From contig NVRR01000040.1 in assembly GCA_002732675.1 (NCBI GenBank), positions 1-15,570 of the forward strand: a stretch of 15,570 bases of DNA, in the 5' to 3' direction. Shown here one piece after another: positions 2,522 through 14,872 of this stretch. How positions within the stretch are numbered: position 1 is the stretch's first letter; the number at the start of each line of letters is the position of its first letter. The notes beneath the pieces are model-generated. The model made no database searches. It worked only from the letters and a program-made list of their open reading frames with translations, and was not told the origin of the DNA. The DNA is from Sneathiella sp. (GTDB lineage Bacteria > Pseudomonadota > Alphaproteobacteria > Sneathiellales > Sneathiellaceae). The translations under genes were made by a program, and so were the position numbers.

Positions 2522-3265
2522 CTATGCAACAACCTGACTGCGCGCTTCATTCATAAGCCGCCGCATCTTAAGGATTGTAGTTTCCAATCCAACAAAAATA
2601 GCTTCACCAATCAGGAAATGGCCGATATTCAACTCGACAATGGTCGGGATCGCAGCAACAGGGCCAACTGTGTCATATGTCAGCCCGTGTCCGGCGTGAC
2701 ACTCAAGGCCCATTTCCTCTGCCAGTGCCGCCGCCTGGATAATGCGTTCAAGTTCGCTCTGGCGCTTCATGCTATCGGTCGTATCGCAATAGGCGCCGAC
2801 ATGAAGCTCGACAATATCAGCACTAAGCCGTGCCGCCGCCTCCATCTGTTTTGGATCGGGCTCAATGAACAACGAAACACGGATACCCGCTTCCTTCAGG
2901 CTCGTGACATAGCTCTGCAGGACATTATGTCCGCCTGCAACATCCAAACCGCCTTCTGTGGTTCTTTCCTCGCGTTTTTCAGGGACCAGGCAACTGGCAT
3001 GGGGTTTATGGCTGAGCGCTATTTCCAGCATCTCATCCGTTGCTGCCATTTCAAAGTTCAGTGGGATGGTAAGTTCGGCGGTAAGACGGGTCATATCATA
3101 ATCGCTGATATGGCGACGGTCTTCGCGCAAATGCGCCGTCAAACCATCGGCACCGGCTGCCTCTGCTATTTTGGCAGCACGCAGCGGATCCGGATGAGCG
3201 CCGCCCCGTGCGTTACGGATCGTTGCTACATGATCAATGTTGATCCCAAGACGCAGTTCTCTCAT
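2522..3265 (-). CDS. pdxJ: Pyridoxine 5'-phosphate synthase
   Basis: PdxJ condenses 3-amino-2-oxopropyl phosphate with 1-deoxy-D-xylulose 5-phosphate, the ring-closing step of the DXP-dependent vitamin B6 pathway. The 247-residue TIM-barrel protein opens with [18 protein letters not shown] (N9, D11, H12). It has [10 protein letters not shown] with H45, E48, R49 and H52, then NFEMA with E72, and GHGL with H193. These match the known active-site residues. The ATG at 3265 overlaps the stop of the preceding DUF2062 gene as ATGA, and GAGG precedes it closely. It belongs to the rpoZ-to-era transcription unit and is followed by acpS. Confidence 0.97.
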
Positions 3266-3882
3266 TTTTCCTCTGCTCCCGCATTATCGCTATCGCTTTT
3301 GCCTTCAATATTATTATTCTGACGCGCAAATCCAATCAATTTCGCCCGCTTCGCGTGAAATTTACGAATGATCGCCCGCAAAGGGTAGAAGAAAATGAAC
3401 CAGACAATCACGGCAATCGGCAAACACGAAACCAGCATGGGGTGGATAACATCGAAGAAAATATGCGATACTTGATGCCATTCCCCGTCCCAAAGCTTGT
3501 CGAAGAAAAACGTCATGGTTGCTTCGTTAAACGAGCCCTGACCGTCATCATGACCCAACATCCAATGACCAACGTTGTAAAGCAATGTCCAGATAAAAGG
3601 GAAAGTCCAAGGATTACCGATGGCTGTACCTAAGGCAGATGCAATAATATTGGCGCGGAATATCCAGGCCAGCAATCCACTAAGAATAAAATGCAGGCCA
3701 ATAAACGGCGTGAAGGAGACGGCGGCGCCAAAGGCGAAGCCTGCGGCGAGCGAATACGGTGTCCCGGGAAGCCTGGCGAGACGATATCCCACATATTTTG
3801 ACGATCTTTTGAAGCCGATTGACGGCCAGAAAAAATCGCCTACCTGGCGGGCTCGCGAAATTTTTTTACGGCGTTGGAACAT
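3262..3882 (-). CDS. DUF2062 family inner-membrane protein
   Basis: This 206-residue protein begins with a basic stretch ([13 protein letters not shown]) and has three or four hydrophobic segments: about 45-62 ([19 protein letters not shown]), about 64-80, about 89-105 and about 150-168 ([19 protein letters not shown]). The GxAxGxxxSFTPFxGLH and GNPWTFP patterns match DUF2062, a membrane family of unknown biochemical role that is often found beside pdxJ, acpS or pyrE in Alphaproteobacteria. It starts 17 bp after pyrE with AAGGG just upstream and overlaps pdxJ by ATGA, so it is co-translated with metabolic genes. Some relatives are fused to glycosyltransferase-like domains, but none is present here. 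Function is unknown. Confidence 0.85.
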
Positions 3883-7408: not shown

Positions 7409-7927
7409 CTAATCAGAGCTGTCGCCGGCGCGTAAAATCTTGAATTCCTGGCTTTCCGGGAGGATTTTTAGCAACTCCAGAGCACTTATCCCTGACACTG
7501 GATGGCGCCATTCCGGCGCGATCTCGGCGATCGGTGCCAAAACAAATGCACGGTACTGCATCAAAGGATGAGGAACAACCGGGCCATCTGACTGATTTTG
7601 GTTGTCGGTTATTTCACCATTAAAGGCAAGGAGATCGAGGTCGAGGACACGCGCTTCCCATTTTTCTCTTCTGATTCTCCCGAATTTTTTCTCGATATTT
7701 TGCAAGGTTTCAAGAGTTGTGCCTAATTTGCTATCTGACGAAATAGATATAACAGCATTTACAAACCAAGGCTGATCGGAACTTGGTACGGGCGCGGAAG
7801 AATACCAGCTTGAGTGGCGGATGACCGGGTAATTTTTCCCAATTTCCGTCACTGCCGCTAATAATGTATGAATGGGCGATCCGAATTCTGGATGATCCAA
7901 GTTCGCCCCAAGTCCAATCAGTATCAC
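7409..7927 (-). CDS. folK: 2-amino-4-hydroxy-6-hydroxymethyldihydropteridine pyrophosphokinase (HPPK)
   Basis: HPPK transfers pyrophosphate from ATP to 6-hydroxymethyl-dihydropterin in folate synthesis. The 172-residue protein begins MILIGLGANLD. It has the family segments SSWYSSAPVP and QPWFVNAV, the signature EARVLDLDLLAF (Mg ligands D96 and D98) and HPLMQYRAFVLAPIAEIAP near the end. It is a stand-alone enzyme with no FolB or FolP fusion. I prefer the GTG at 7927 because GAGGA lies seven bases upstream; a TTG two codons earlier is almost on top of that site. It is divergent from the NYN gene and lies 182 bp upstream of rpoZ, with which it may share some transcripts. Confidence 0.94.
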   Translation of the reverse strand: MILIGLGANLDHPEFGSPIHTLLAAVTEIGKNYPVIRHSSWYSSAPVPSSDQPWFVNAVISISSDSKLGTTLETLQNIEKKFGRIRREKWEARVLDLDLLAFNGEITDNQNQSDGPVVPHPLMQYRAFVLAPIAEIAPEWRHPVSGISALELLKILPESQEFKILRAGDSSD

Positions 7928-8003
7928 ATGCAAATCCTCAAATTCGGCAGTTACGCGTTGTCTTGAGCGCTTTTCTACATAAAAAAGACATGTTTATACA
8001 AAT

Positions 8004-8019
8004 CATATCTAGAGATATG
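8004..8019. promoter_or_regulatory. 16-bp palindrome in folK/NYN divergent region (operator candidate)
   Basis: CATATCT-AG-AGATATG has seven-base half sites that match perfectly around a 2-bp centre. It sits in the 177-bp gap between folK and the NYN gene, six bases from TATAAA (minus strand, 7998-7993), which could be a folK -10. Short perfect palindromes at such positions are typical of dimeric repressor sites. No regulator is encoded nearby, so the binding protein is unknown. Confidence 0.4.
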
Positions 8020-8047
8020 GCTTCAACTTTGCTATGAATATGAAGGG

Positions 8048-8065
8048 GGGAATGAATAAATTCCC
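8048..8065. repeat. Inverted repeat GGGAAT/ATTCCC upstream of NYN gene
   Basis: GGGAAT at 8048-8053 pairs with ATTCCC at 8060-8065 over a six-base AT-rich centre. It lies 40-57 bp before the NYN start and just upstream of a TATAAT at 8080-8085. It could be an operator or a chance repeat. Confidence 0.3.
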
Positions 8066-8079
8066 GATATACATTTATT

Positions 8080-8085
8080 TATAAT
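8080..8085 (+). promoter_or_regulatory. Candidate -10 box (TATAAT) for the NYN gene
   Basis: A perfect TATAAT lies 19 bp before the ATG at 8105, in a very AT-rich stretch. No convincing -35 is found at the right distance, and the leader would be only about a dozen bases with a weak GGA. The assignment is tentative. Confidence 0.3.
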
Positions 8086-8104
8086 AATAAAATCGGATGA
8101 TTAA

Positions 8105-8713
8105 ATGCCTTTTTATTCAGAAGAACGCATTGCACTATTTATAGATGGATCGAACCTCTATGCCGCCGCGAGATCTCTTGGATTTGATATTGATTACAAA
8201 AGACTACTCGGTGAGTTTGCATCGCAAGGACGCCTCGTCCGCGCCTTCTATTATACGGCACTGATCGAAGATCAGGAATATTCCCCGATCCGTCCGTTGG
8301 TCGATTGGCTCGACTATAACGGCTATACGATGGTCACAAAGCCAACGAAAGAATTTACCGACAGCACGACGGGACGGCGAAAATATAAGGGTAATATGGA
8401 TATCGAATTGGCGATCGATATGATGGAACTTGCCCCGCATATTGACCATGCCGTGTTATTTTCCGGTGACGGTGATTTCCGACGGCTCGTTGAAGCTATC
8501 CAGCGTCGCGGTGTCCGGGTGACAGTTGTCAGCACCGTTAAATCACAACCGCCAATGATCGCTGACGAGTTACGACGTCAGGCAGATTTCTTTATAGAAC
8601 TTAAAGACATGGAGAAGAAAGTCGGTCGCGCCGTAACGCCACGCGAAAACCGTGAATACGAAGACTTCCCGGCCGAAATCGAGCCCTATGACGACGCCGA
8701 AAAATTGGCGTAG
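8105..8713 (+). CDS. NYN domain protein, LabA/DUF88-like predicted ribonuclease
   Basis: The NYN fold is a PIN-like metal-dependent nuclease fold. The 202-residue protein has the conserved acidic sites: FIDGSNLY (D14, N17), GNMDIELAIDM (D99 and D105) and LFSGDGDF (D122 and D124). The core ends near residue 165, followed by a charged tail of about 35 residues rich in Glu, Arg and Asp. All expected catalytic acids are present, so it is probably an active RNase, but the substrate is unknown. Proteins of this group commonly lie near folK, rpoZ or smpB in Alphaproteobacteria, which hints at a role in RNA turnover. It is transcribed divergently from folK. The ribosome site is weak (GGATGATTAA before ATG). 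Confidence 0.88.
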   Translation: MPFYSEERIALFIDGSNLYAAARSLGFDIDYKRLLGEFASQGRLVRAFYYTALIEDQEYSPIRPLVDWLDYNGYTMVTKPTKEFTDSTTGRRKYKGNMDIELAIDMMELAPHIDHAVLFSGDGDFRRLVEAIQRRGVRVTVVSTVKSQPPMIADELRRQADFFIELKDMEKKVGRAVTPRENREYEDFPAEIEPYDDAEKLA

Positions 8714-8796
8714 ATCAAATCTGTCCTCCGGTCTTCCGGCCTTAAAAAAATCGAACTATTTGTCCGTTGAAAACTAATAGCCAATTAGCGGCGGTT

Positions 8797-8805
8797 TGCT
8801 ATAAT
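8797..8805 (+). promoter_or_regulatory. Extended -10 promoter (TGCTATAAT) for the DUF2235-PilZ gene
   Basis: TG-C-TATAAT is a perfect extended -10 element, 23 bp before the ATG at 8829. No good -35 lies 17 bp upstream, which extended -10 promoters do not need. It implies the downstream gene is transcribed on its own, not only by read-through from the NYN gene. Confidence 0.5.
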
Positions 8806-8828
8806 TAACTCTATTGATGGGGGAGAAT

Positions 8829-10154
8829 ATGGCGCAGAAACTAATCATTTTTAGCGATTGTTGCTGGATACGACCGCAATATAGAAGCAAAAACAGGCGC
8901 GTACCTGGAAATATATCCCTGGCGCATCATTGCTTGGCGCCCAAAGACGATCTTGATGTTCCGCAAATTCCCTATTTTAGGGAGCCCCCCCAAAAACTAT
9001 TTAGTGCTGCTGGTCTGATGCGGCGCTATTTCGGCCTCGGACTACAAGCCGAAGTTTTCGATATTTATCGTTTTTTGTCAATAACTTACCAACAAGGGGA
9101 TGAAATTTACCTCCTCGGCTCTGGCCTCGGGGCATATAATCTGCGACGACTGGCCGATATGATCGACCGGGTTGGTCTGCTGGAACCCGACGACCTCCAC
9201 ATGCTGCCGGAAATATTTGAATATTATCAAATCCCTGTCGACGCCTTAAGCACACCCGCGGCAATGGAAATGAAGGAAAAGTTCAACGGCCGCCCGGTTC
9301 GTATTCGCTTTTTGGGGTGCTGGGATACGGTCGGTAGTCATGGCTTGCCCCTCCCGCTTTTCCAACAGATTTCGCAAAGCTGGATGATGCTTCATGATCA
9401 CGACGTCAATGCAAATGTTGATGCCGCCTTTCAGGCCCTGGCTCTGGACGAGCGACGCAAGCTCTTCCAGCCCGCATTATGGACCGGCGCACATTCGTCG
9501 CGCCTCGAAAAAATAGAGCAAGTCTGGTTTGCCGGATCACATGAGAATATAGTGGGCGGTAGGCGCGATAGCGGCCTGTCAGATATCGCGTTAATCTGGC
9601 TTCTCAATCGTGCTCAGGAACACGGCCTGTCGTTTGATCCAGAAAAACTGGCCGAAATTAGTGCCCCGGATATCGCGGGAAGCATTGCCCGCAAGCGGCG
9701 TTTTATATATGGGAAACCCATATCGATCGGTCGCCCTTACAACCGACCGGTGGATAGGACGAAAGGCGAAAAGCTCCATGAAAGCGTCTTGCAAAAGCAG
9801 CAGGCGGAGGGAAAATACCTGCCACCCCAACTCGCAAGCCTGCGGCCTGGCGATATTCCGGTTTTTAAGGAATTGAACGAGCCGATAGCAAACAAGCGCC
9901 GCCATTTACGGCGCAAGGTTGACTGGCCGGCGTTTTTGATCAATGGCGATGTGAAGTTAAATGCGAGCCTCGTCGATTACAGCAAAAGCGGCGCCAAAGT
10001 CTGGCTACACGGCCAGATACCAGTCGGAACATCGATCATTTTACAATCCTCCCGGAGTTTTATGGAAGGGCTGAAAAGCAAGGTTATCTGGAGCCAGGAC
10101 AATTTTATCGGGCTTGAATTTGCCGCGCCGCTCGTCGCTAATAACGCCGTATAA
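8829..10154 (+). CDS. DUF2235 hydrolase-fold protein with degenerate active site, fused to C-terminal PilZ domain
   Basis: The 441-residue protein has two parts. Residues 1 to about 340 follow the DUF2235 pattern (alpha/beta-hydrolase, the fold of Tle1-type phospholipases): EVFDIYRFLSITYQQGDEIY, FLGCWDTVGSHGLPL, ALALDERRKLFQPALW, EQVWFAGSH, SGLSDIALIWL and LHESVLQKQ. Residues about 350-435 are PilZ, with RRHLRR at 357-362 (RxxxR), DYSKSG at 383-388 (DxSxxG) and a terminal FIGLEF. The usual GFSRGA elbow reads GSGLGA (97-102), so the nucleophile Ser is Gly99. The N-terminal DGT reads DCC (10-12) and the motif after His238 is HENIVGG. Asp166 and His238 remain. I infer a c-di-GMP-binding pseudo-hydrolase. 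The start at 8829 follows GGGGGAG; a TTG at 8814 is also open. Confidence 0.85.
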   Translation: MAQKLIIFSDCCWIRPQYRSKNRRVPGNISLAHHCLAPKDDLDVPQIPYFREPPQKLFSAAGLMRRYFGLGLQAEVFDIYRFLSITYQQGDEIYLLGSGLGAYNLRRLADMIDRVGLLEPDDLHMLPEIFEYYQIPVDALSTPAAMEMKEKFNGRPVRIRFLGCWDTVGSHGLPLPLFQQISQSWMMLHDHDVNANVDAAFQALALDERRKLFQPALWTGAHSSRLEKIEQVWFAGSHENIVGGRRDSGLSDIALIWLLNRAQEHGLSFDPEKLAEISAPDIAGSIARKRRFIYGKPISIGRPYNRPVDRTKGEKLHESVLQKQQAEGKYLPPQLASLRPGDIPVFKELNEPIANKRRHLRRKVDWPAFLINGDVKLNASLVDYSKSGAKVWLHGQIPVGTSIILQSSRSFMEGLKSKVIWSQDNFIGLEFAAPLVANNAV

Positions 10155-10174
10155 AAGCCAGACCCTGATACAGA

Positions 10175-10627
10175 TTATTGATTGTCTTTCAGGAGACGTT
10201 GTTTCTCTCTGTTCCAATCACGCTCTTTTTCGGTCGCCCGTTTGTCATGTTGTTTCTTGCCTGATGCCAGCCCAAGTTGGACTTTGGCAATGCCGCGATC
10301 ATTGAAATAGAGGGAAAGCGGAATAAGCGTCTTTCCAGCCTTTTGGATAAGGCTGGCTATCTTGTTAATCTGCTTTTTATGCATCAGGAGTTTGCGGGGC
10401 CTCATTGGCTCATGGTTATTACGGTTTCCATGGCCATATTCCGAGATATGGGCGTTGACGAGATACAGCCCGTCATTCTCAAAATTCGCGTATGATTCTT
10501 GAATATTGGCCCGCCCGGCCCGCAGGCTTTTCACCTCCGTACCCTGCAGCATTAGACCCGCTTCAAATTCCTCCTCAATGAAGTAATTATAGCGGGCCTT
10601 ACGATTTTTTGCGACAGTCTGTCCCAT
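10175..10627 (-). CDS. smpB: SsrA-binding protein SmpB
   Basis: SmpB binds tmRNA and carries it to stalled ribosomes in trans-translation. The 150-residue protein has the conserved [18 protein letters not shown] start, [26 protein letters not shown] and the basic C-terminal tail ([21 protein letters not shown]) that enters the empty mRNA channel. The ATG at 10627 gives the normal family N-terminus, and an in-frame stop lies upstream inside dapA. The nearest strong Shine-Dalgarno (AAGGAG) is about 21 bases away, too far for this start. It follows dapA by 25 bp on the same strand and converges with the DUF2235-PilZ gene across 20 bp. Confidence 0.96.
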
Positions 10628-14521: not shown

Positions 14522-14872
14522 ATGCGTAAACAGTTGGTCTTTCTCGCGTCCGCCGCCCTCCTCGCGCTCTCCCCCCTAGAGAGTGCGGCAACAGAAAAAG
14601 CTGCGCCCAATTCCAGCGTGACATCGCAAAAGCCAGATATCGTAGCCCATGCGCTTTTCAGCGCTCGCCTCACCCCGCGCCCAAGAACAAGACCCATGGG
14701 GCTGCAGTTACCTCCTCATCCCCTCGCAACGGGATTGTTGAACGAAGCGGATCTCAAAATATACCGGCAGGCATTTGCTGCCGCCACCGATCGTCAATGG
14801 CACAAAGCCCGCGCCGCCCTGAAAAAAGTGGAAAAACTAAGCCAGAGCGGGGCCTTTGAGGGTCGCCGCTAG
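14522..14872 (+). pseudogene. Short secreted ORF, probable N-terminal remnant of a soluble lytic transglycosylase
   Basis: The 116-residue product begins with a clear signal peptide (RK, then LVFLASAALLALSP, likely cut after ESAA). A Pro/Arg-rich stretch (TPRPRTRPMG) follows, then LNEADLKIYRQAFAAATDRQWHKARAAL at 73-100. This last part resembles the first alpha-superhelix repeat of Slt-type lytic transglycosylases (x-D-x-x-x-Y-R-x-A-F-x-x-x...W-x-x-A), often encoded near dapA and galU in Alphaproteobacteria. The remaining several hundred residues, including the catalytic domain, are absent. The stop codon overlaps the galU stop by 4 nt. I infer a deletion remnant; a real small periplasmic protein is the alternative. 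The ribosome site is weak. Confidence 0.5.

What the first reader, a model, noticed from the sequence alone, without database searches (positions are those of the whole stretch)
8829..10154. DUF2235 hydrolase-fold protein that has lost its nucleophile and gained a PilZ domain
Seen: the expected G-F-S-R-G-A elbow reads G-S-G-L-G-A, so Gly99 replaces the nucleophilic Ser; the N-terminal D-G-T reads D-C-C; the usual H-S-D-V-G-G-G reads H-E-N-I-V-G-G. Asp166 and His238 remain, the rest of the fold is well kept, and the reading frame is intact over 441 codons. Seen: a C-terminal PilZ domain with intact RxxxR and DxSxxG. Known: DUF2235/Tle1 proteins use Ser-Asp-His catalysis, and those PilZ motifs bind c-di-GMP. 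Inference: this is a c-di-GMP receptor built on a pseudo-hydrolase, acting as a binding or scaffold module, or an enzyme with a displaced nucleophile (Ser98). Its insertion next to conserved housekeeping genes suggests lineage-specific recruitment.
Basis: partly seen in the sequence, partly recalled or inferred. Interest (0 to 1): 0.7.

Follow-up and report, generated by a model that had tools for sequence, protein, structure and literature searches.

The report
Dead hydrolase fused to c-di-GMP sensor
Most examined genomes of the bacterial genus Sneathiella carry a protein in which an enzyme-shaped domain has lost its cutting residue yet is kept under strong selection, joined to a domain expected to sense the bacterial messenger c-di-GMP, so it is probably a sensor or binding protein, not an enzyme.

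Summary
The 441-aa ORF at 8829-10154(+) has a DUF2235/Tle1-like domain (E 1.9e-53) and a C-terminal PilZ domain (E 6.5e-5, just over cut-off). The nucleophile Ser is Gly99; Asp166 and His238 are kept. It is not isolated decay: an orthologue was found in 21 of 24 Sneathiella genomes. All 21 distinct orthologues covering the elbow read G-[AS]-G-[LR]-G-[AG]; all 127 other distinct DUF2235 proteins collected, Sneathiella paralogues included, keep Ser. PilZ motifs are kept. The gene lies between NYN and smpB in 12 of 12 readable loci; dN/dS was 0.056-0.086 in the 5 of 9 pairs measurable. DUF2235-PilZ fusions with intact Ser occur sporadically in Gammaproteobacteria, so the architecture is not unique and may predate the loss. 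AlphaFold gives a confident model (pLDDT 89.5); Foldseek's top matches are Tle1 and PilZ proteins, Tle1 at low TM-score. Best reading: a genus-wide c-di-GMP receptor on a pseudo-hydrolase. c-di-GMP binding, inactivity, and partner or ligand are inferred.

The parts
8829..10154 (+). DUF2235/Tle1-like pseudo-hydrolase plus PilZ protein, 441 aa
   Evidence: orthologues
8838..9608 (+). Tle1-like (DUF2235) alpha/beta-hydrolase domain, residues 4-260
   Evidence: Pfam PF09994 E 1.9e-53; Foldseek first hit Tle1 4o5p, E 1.3e-6, TM-score 0.35
9117..9134 (+). former nucleophile elbow, residues 97-102 GSGLGA; Gly99 in the place of the nucleophile Ser
9324..9326 (+). Asp166, acid of the former triad, invariant in 19 of 19 orthologues
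9540..9542 (+). His238, base of the former triad, invariant in 19 of 19 orthologues
9891..10121 (+). PilZ domain, residues 355-431, with RxxxR (357-361) and DxSxxG (383-388)
   Evidence: Pfam PF07238 E 6.5e-5; motif conservation; Foldseek matches to PilZ structures, many with c-di-GMP
8778..8805 (+). extended -10 promoter-like site (10 of 12 matches, TG before the second hexamer), possible promoter of the gene
   Evidence: consensus match only, number of such sites not above shuffles
8105..8713 (+). NYN-domain gene, conserved upstream neighbour
   Evidence: Pfam PF01936 E 9.1e-42; synteny
10175..10627 (-). smpB, conserved convergent downstream neighbour
   Evidence: Pfam PF01668 E 4.2e-59; synteny

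Best explanation
A core protein of Sneathiella that works as a c-di-GMP receptor with a catalytically dead Tle1-like hydrolase domain. Shown by sequence: the nucleophile is lost in every orthologue that covers the elbow; the acid, the base and the predicted fold are kept; other family-conserved glycines (positions 53, 55, 66, 242) are replaced; the PilZ ligand motifs are kept; the protein is under purifying selection. Inferred: c-di-GMP binds RxxxR/DxSxxG in the PilZ domain and changes how the pseudo-hydrolase domain sits; that domain, no longer hydrolysing, binds a ligand (plausibly a lipid-like or phosphate-bearing molecule in the old pocket) or a protein partner, so that its binding is switched by the c-di-GMP level. 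It descends from an active hydrolase, plausibly one already fused to PilZ.
For: Orthologue in 21 of 24 Sneathiella genomes (own genome, 20 of 23 relatives). Of the 3 without a hit, the neighbour NYN gene is also not found in 2 (G002, G006), and in G012 the contig ends about 420 bases after NYN, so absence is not shown. Elbow without Ser in 21 of 21 distinct orthologues against Ser in 127 of 127 others (51 of 51 in the aligned set). D10, D166, H238, R357, R361, D383 and G388 invariant in 19 of 19; S385 in 18, Cys in one. One clade, support 100/100, stem 1.08. NYN-gene-smpB order in 12 of 12 loci readable on both sides, of 13 examined; gene tree and neighbour-protein tree show the same main groups in 13 rows. 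Whole-gene dN/dS 0.056-0.086 in 5 of 9 pairs. c-di-GMP enzymes: 6 GGDEF and 3 EAL matches in the window's incomplete genome, EAL in 11 of 11 Sneathiella genomes searched. AlphaFold pLDDT 89.5, pTM 0.84. Foldseek top matches: Tle1 (4o5p, 6sjl, 6ski) and PilZ proteins, several with c-di-GMP (PA0012, VCA0042, BcsA complexes).
Against: No binding or activity data. The window's PilZ scores just above Pfam's cut-off (23.6 against 22.5 bits), and one orthologue has DxCxxG. The acid and base of the triad are kept without exception, which a pure scaffold would not need. In G009 the gene is split over two frames. The Tle1 matches (4o5p, 6sjl, 6ski) have TM-scores of only 0.32-0.35 and rmsd of 8.6-10.2 A over the two-domain model. 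dN/dS rests on nearly saturated dS (0.88-1.86) in five pairs of one subgroup; in the other four of nine pairs dS was saturated. The bootstrap of the tree had not settled. Ligand or partner unknown.
Confidence: 0.66

Rival explanations
1. The protein is still an enzyme, but with another chemistry: the kept Asp10, Asp166 and His238, with newly fixed residues (Arg19, Ser20, Arg23, Arg66), do general-base or phosphate chemistry without a serine nucleophile, gated by c-di-GMP.
For: D10, D166 and H238 invariant in 19 of 19; sites fixed in Sneathiella and rare outside: R19, S20, R23 and G99 in 17 of 17, R66 and E75 in 16 of 17; purifying selection.
Against: Glycines at family positions 53, 55, 66 (51 of 51 outside) and 242 (50 of 51) are replaced; that they line the canonical site is inference. 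No serine-free DUF2235 enzyme was met in two paper searches.
Confidence: 0.17
2. Pseudo-hydrolase scaffold in which PilZ no longer binds c-di-GMP and serves only as a protein-protein module.
For: Low Pfam score for the window's PilZ; a related gamma protein (L170) has a PilZ-like tail, by eye, that Pfam does not recognise and that lacks the motifs.
Against: RxxxR kept in 19 of 19; in DxSxxG the Asp and Gly in 19 of 19 and the Ser in 18 of 19.
Confidence: 0.13
3. Hydrolase with displaced nucleophile Ser98.
For: The window species has Ser98; 3 of 21 distinct elbows have Ser there.
Against: Ala98 in 17 of 19 full-length orthologues; by general knowledge of the fold the residue before the nucleophile is not at the elbow apex.
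Confidence: 0.02
4. Decaying gene on its way to loss, or a sequencing error.
For: One genome with a split frame (G009). The protein evolves faster than its neighbours: in the seven more distant loci 35-39% identity to the window, against 50-86% for the named neighbours (the small orf116, 40-44%, apart).
Against: Open frame and kept motifs in 19 full-length orthologues, dN/dS 0.056-0.086 where measurable, loss of Ser in 21 of 21.
Confidence: 0.02

Closest known systems
DUF2235 / Tle1-like phospholipase domain (PF09994; Tle1 4o5p, TleB 9j3f)
   Same: Profile match, D10, Asp and His of the triad; first Foldseek hit
   Different: No nucleophile Ser, altered glycine positions, housekeeping neighbours, no VgrG gene recognised in the window; TleB uses Ser240-Asp280-His347 (passages of PMC12421835)
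DUF2235-PilZ fusions of Marinobacter, gamma proteobacterium HdN1 and others (loci L045, L046, L047, L050, L057, L060, L142)
   Same: Same domain order, PilZ recognised by Pfam and motifs kept; among the nearest relatives in the tree
   Different: Ser kept: GFSRGA, or GASRGA in L142; in the six loci examined none of the window's neighbour genes was found nearby (L142 not examined); sporadic: full-length matches in 2 of 369 gamma genomes, one with an unrecognised PilZ-like tail
PilZ-domain c-di-GMP receptors (YcgR, MapZ, Alg44, BcsA, VCA0042)
   Same: PilZ fold in the model and RxxxR / DxSxxG motifs
   Different: Output partner here is a pseudo-hydrolase; no such pairing found in the paper searches made
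Alpha/beta-hydrolase-fold receptors and pseudoenzymes (plant KAI2 receptors; DPP6/DPP10 channel subunits)
   Same: A hydrolase fold used for perception or binding (starts of the abstracts of PMC8837635 and PMC4873792 in the listing)
   Different: Other families and kingdoms, no PilZ; KAI2 keeps its catalytic serine (recall)

Membership tests
DUF2235/Tle1-like domain (PF09994) | profile match over the domain | tested here: met
   E 1.9e-53, 182 bits against 27
DUF2235/Tle1-like domain (PF09994) | catalytic Ser in GxSxG | tested here: not met
   Gly99; 21 of 21 distinct orthologues, 19 of 19 full-length
DUF2235/Tle1-like domain (PF09994) | Asp and His of the triad | tested here: met
   D166 and H238 in 19 of 19
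T6SS phospholipase effector Tle1 | phospholipase activity | not testable with these tools
   needs an assay; sequence speaks against the canonical serine mechanism
T6SS phospholipase effector Tle1 | VgrG or immunity gene in the neighbourhood | tested here: not met
   the twelve neighbours recognised by Pfam are ribonuclease III, signal peptidase, ACPS, PdxJ, phosphoribosyltransferase, RelA/SpoT, RNA polymerase omega (Rpb6 family), HPPK, NYN, SmpB, DHDPS and peptidase M1, plus a nucleotidyl transferase ORF at the contig end; of two further ORFs one (14522-14872) has no match and one (3262-3882) was not scanned
PilZ c-di-GMP receptor | PilZ profile match | tested here: met
   window 23.6 bits against 22.5; 13 of 13 rows of A2 at E up to 1, 7 of them Sneathiella; 4 of 4 Sneathiella rows, one of them (L040) also in A2
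PilZ c-di-GMP receptor | RxxxR and [DN]xSxxG motifs | tested here: met
   19 of 19 for R, R, D, G; 18 of 19 for S
PilZ c-di-GMP receptor | measured c-di-GMP binding | not testable with these tools
   needs ITC or DRaCALA
DUF2235-PilZ fusion with gamma members | common origin of the fusion | tested here: inconclusive
   AU test with 7 gamma fusions p 0.457, with 8 p 0.227: not rejected, not shown

The most novel reading that the evidence does not exclude
The dead elbow has become a ligand site: G-x-G-x-G at the strand-helix turn, with Arg19 and Arg23 (17 of 17) and Arg66 (16 of 17) fixed in the clade, binds the phosphate of a nucleotide or lipid head group, so that one protein reads two signals, c-di-GMP in PilZ and a second ligand in the former active site.
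Probability: 0.12. Interest if true: 0.75.

Novelty: new variant of a known kind. Interest (0 to 1): 0.52.

Why it matters
c-di-GMP receptors with a pseudoenzyme output domain of this kind are not known to me (recall), and no paper on a DUF2235-PilZ protein turned up in the searches made. Nature offers a matched pair here: fusions with the Ser kept in Gammaproteobacteria and without it in Sneathiella. This makes it testable whether c-di-GMP control preceded the loss of catalysis, and what a Tle1-like domain does once it stops hydrolysing.

Tried and rejected
Displaced nucleophile Ser98: rejected by orthologues. Isolated decay or sequencing error: rejected. Fusion unique to Sneathiella: rejected, gamma fusions found. 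Sequence search of the PDB with the single protein found nothing at E up to 1; a profile found 6 sequences, among them Tle1 and TleB. No phage relative at E 1e-5; 107 plasmid records match at under 60% identity, and none of the 15 listed extends beyond residue 358. NCBIfam: no match. The first genome-contig scan found no relative. Neighbourhoods of six gamma fusions were read by eye, without family searches; no theme shared by all was seen. The second structural aligner was not available. Paper searches without use: (in part).

Counting notes. In one search one of the 127 (L082) was scored at a wrong site; one search shows GFSRGA at its elbow and finds GxSxG in 127 of 127. Two distinct orthologue rows (L021, C-terminal half of L022) do not cover the elbow and were left out of the 21; one of the 21 (L039) is titled only Sneathiellales. 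The 19-row table left out L021, both L022 pieces and L039. The tree used 68 of 172 collected proteins (150 distinct), residues about 1-275, elbow columns left out. A first form of this report said that D-C-C occurs in 4 of 19 orthologues; recounting gave 3. It also gave neighbour identities too narrowly, and named neighbours by recall; two searches were made to check the names.

Full report
What is there. The ORF at 8829-10154(+) encodes 441 aa. Pfam finds the Tle1-like/DUF2235 domain at residues 4-260 (E 1.9e-53) and PilZ at 355-431 (E 6.5e-5, 23.6 bits, cut-off 22.5); NCBIfam finds nothing. The elbow reads GSGLGA (97-102) in place of the family's GFSRGA. Asp166, His238 and Asp10 are kept. 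The neighbours are housekeeping genes: ribonuclease III, signal peptidase, ACPS, PdxJ, a phosphoribosyltransferase, RelA/SpoT, RNA polymerase omega, HPPK and NYN on one side, SmpB, DHDPS and peptidase M1 on the other.

The genus. The window's genome is incomplete (65.9%). Orthologues were found in the window genome and in 20 of 23 same-genus genomes. In the other three the NYN gene is not found either (G002, G006), or the contig ends about 420 bases after it (G012), so these do not show absence. In G016 the match begins at a contig end, and in G009 the gene is split over two frames.

The loss of the nucleophile is fixed. In 19 full-length orthologues Gly97, Gly99 and Gly101 are invariant; residue 98 is Ala in 17 and Ser in 2. 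Counting distinct sequences, with the N-terminal half in G009 and locus L039 (titled Sneathiellales), 21 of 21 lack Ser; all 127 other distinct DUF2235 proteins collected have it. Those 127 are a sample near to the query (best 80 of 554, and the loci) and include Sneathiella paralogues with GFSRGA (L027, L028, L029, L031). This speaks against a sequencing error or a recent decay, and against Ser98 as a conserved replacement nucleophile. Other family positions changed too: Gly at 53, 55 and 66 (51 of 51 outside) and 242 (50 of 51) are replaced, while Arg19, Ser20, Arg23 and Gly99 (17 of 17) and Arg66 and Glu75 (16 of 17) have become fixed or nearly so. DGT reads DxS in 15 of 19, DCC in 3 and DGC in 1.

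PilZ is kept. R357, R361, D383 and G388 are invariant in 19 of 19, S385 in 18 of 19. Pfam recognises PilZ in 13 of 13 rows of alignment A2 at E up to 1, 7 of them Sneathiella, and in the four Sneathiella rows given to (L040 is in both). The genus has c-di-GMP enzymes: 6 GGDEF and 3 EAL matches in the window genome, EAL in 11 of 11 genomes searched.

Selection and place. In the five of nine pairs whose whole-gene dS could be estimated, dN/dS was 0.056-0.086; dS was 0.88-1.86 and all five pairs lie in one subgroup, so this is rough; in the other four dS was saturated. The gene lies between NYN and smpB in 12 of 12 loci readable on both sides, of 13 examined. In three of them (L032, L034, L035) about 1 kb separates NYN from the gene; in L034 this holds an ORF on the other strand that looks like a lipoprotein by eye and has no Pfam match. 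In another genus of the same family (G024) the NYN-smpB interval holds a uracil-DNA-glycosylase-superfamily ORF (Pfam E 1.7e-20), and no relative of the window protein was found in that genome at E up to 1e-5. The gene tree and a tree of four neighbour proteins (13 rows) show the same main groups, as expected from vertical inheritance. The protein evolves faster than its neighbours: in the seven more distant loci 35-39% identity to the window against 50-86% for the named neighbours.

Where the architecture comes from. In 385 alphaproteobacterial genomes, matches at E up to 1e-25 were found in 41; those covering the PilZ part were only in Sneathiella, 5 genomes with the window's own. In 398 genomes of the phylum one further full-length match appeared, in G729. 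In Gammaproteobacteria the fusion with Ser kept occurs in four Marinobacter species, HdN1 and a MAG; G729 is the only one of 129 genomes of its genus with it (E up to 1e-110), and 2 of 369 class genomes, G729 and G1175, had full-length matches (E up to 1e-90); the PilZ-like tail of G1175 (L170) is not recognised by Pfam. In the tree the 17 rows of the pseudo-form make one clade (100/100, stem 1.08); a branch of 98/86 parts them, the 8 gamma fusions and 6 single-domain proteins (two of Pelagibius, one Sneathiella paralogue) from the other 37; the bootstrap had not settled. A clade of the pseudo-form with the 7 recognised gamma fusions costs 1.5 log units and is not rejected (p 0.457; with L170 p 0.227). 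PilZ may have been present before the nucleophile was lost, but this is not shown. L142 has GASRGA: the Phe-to-Ala change with the Ser kept.

Structure. AlphaFold from a 59-row alignment gave pLDDT 89.5 and pTM 0.84, with a strand at 92-99 and a helix from 100, as at a nucleophile elbow. Foldseek against the PDB ranks Tle1 first (4o5p, E 1.3e-6, but TM-score 0.35 and rmsd 8.6 A) and then mostly PilZ structures, many with c-di-GMP. Domain orientation is not judged, as no coordinates or error map were given.

Mechanism. I judge a c-di-GMP receptor on a pseudo-hydrolase most likely (0.66). The kept Asp and His are the best argument for the rival that some other chemistry remains (0.17). Binding of c-di-GMP, lack of activity, and ligand or partner are inferred.

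Literature. DUF2235 proteins use a Ser-Asp-His triad (TleB Ser240-Asp280-His347; passages of PMC12421835), and an early survey filed DUF2235 with lipid-acting alpha/beta hydrolases (passages of PMC3482391). Searches for DUF2235 with PilZ, Tle1 with PilZ, PilZ with pseudoenzyme, Sneathiella with PilZ, and PilZ domain with hydrolase domain listed no paper on such a protein; only openly licensed papers are held. In the one Sneathiella paper listed, the word PilZ was not in the held part of the text.

Noticed in passing
L174 (G024), 2121-2783 +: In another genus of the same family the NYN-smpB interval holds a uracil-DNA-glycosylase-superfamily ORF (Pfam E 1.7e-20), so the pseudo-hydrolase gene seems to occupy a variable slot.
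   Followed up: partly
L034 7043-7693 -: Lipoprotein-like ORF (by eye, no Pfam match) on the opposite strand between NYN and the pseudo-hydrolase gene; L032 and L035 have a gap of similar size there.
   Followed up: partly
L022 (G009:C11): The orthologue is split over two frames in one otherwise complete genome; assembly error or pseudogene, not told apart.
   Followed up: no
L017/L044: PilZ motif reads DxCxxG, the only Ser change among 19 orthologues.
   Followed up: no
L142 (G729): Gamma fusion with GASRGA elbow: Phe-to-Ala change but nucleophile kept, resembling a half step towards the Sneathiella GAGRGA.
   Followed up: partly
window 14522-14872 +: Small ORF after pepN, no Pfam match, found in 8 of the 13 Sneathiella loci by tblastn at 38-58% identity.
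   Followed up: no
window 7900-10300: Terminator-like sites are 8 against 2.8 (sd 1.3) in shuffles, 6 of the 8 on the minus strand; unexplained.
   Followed up: no
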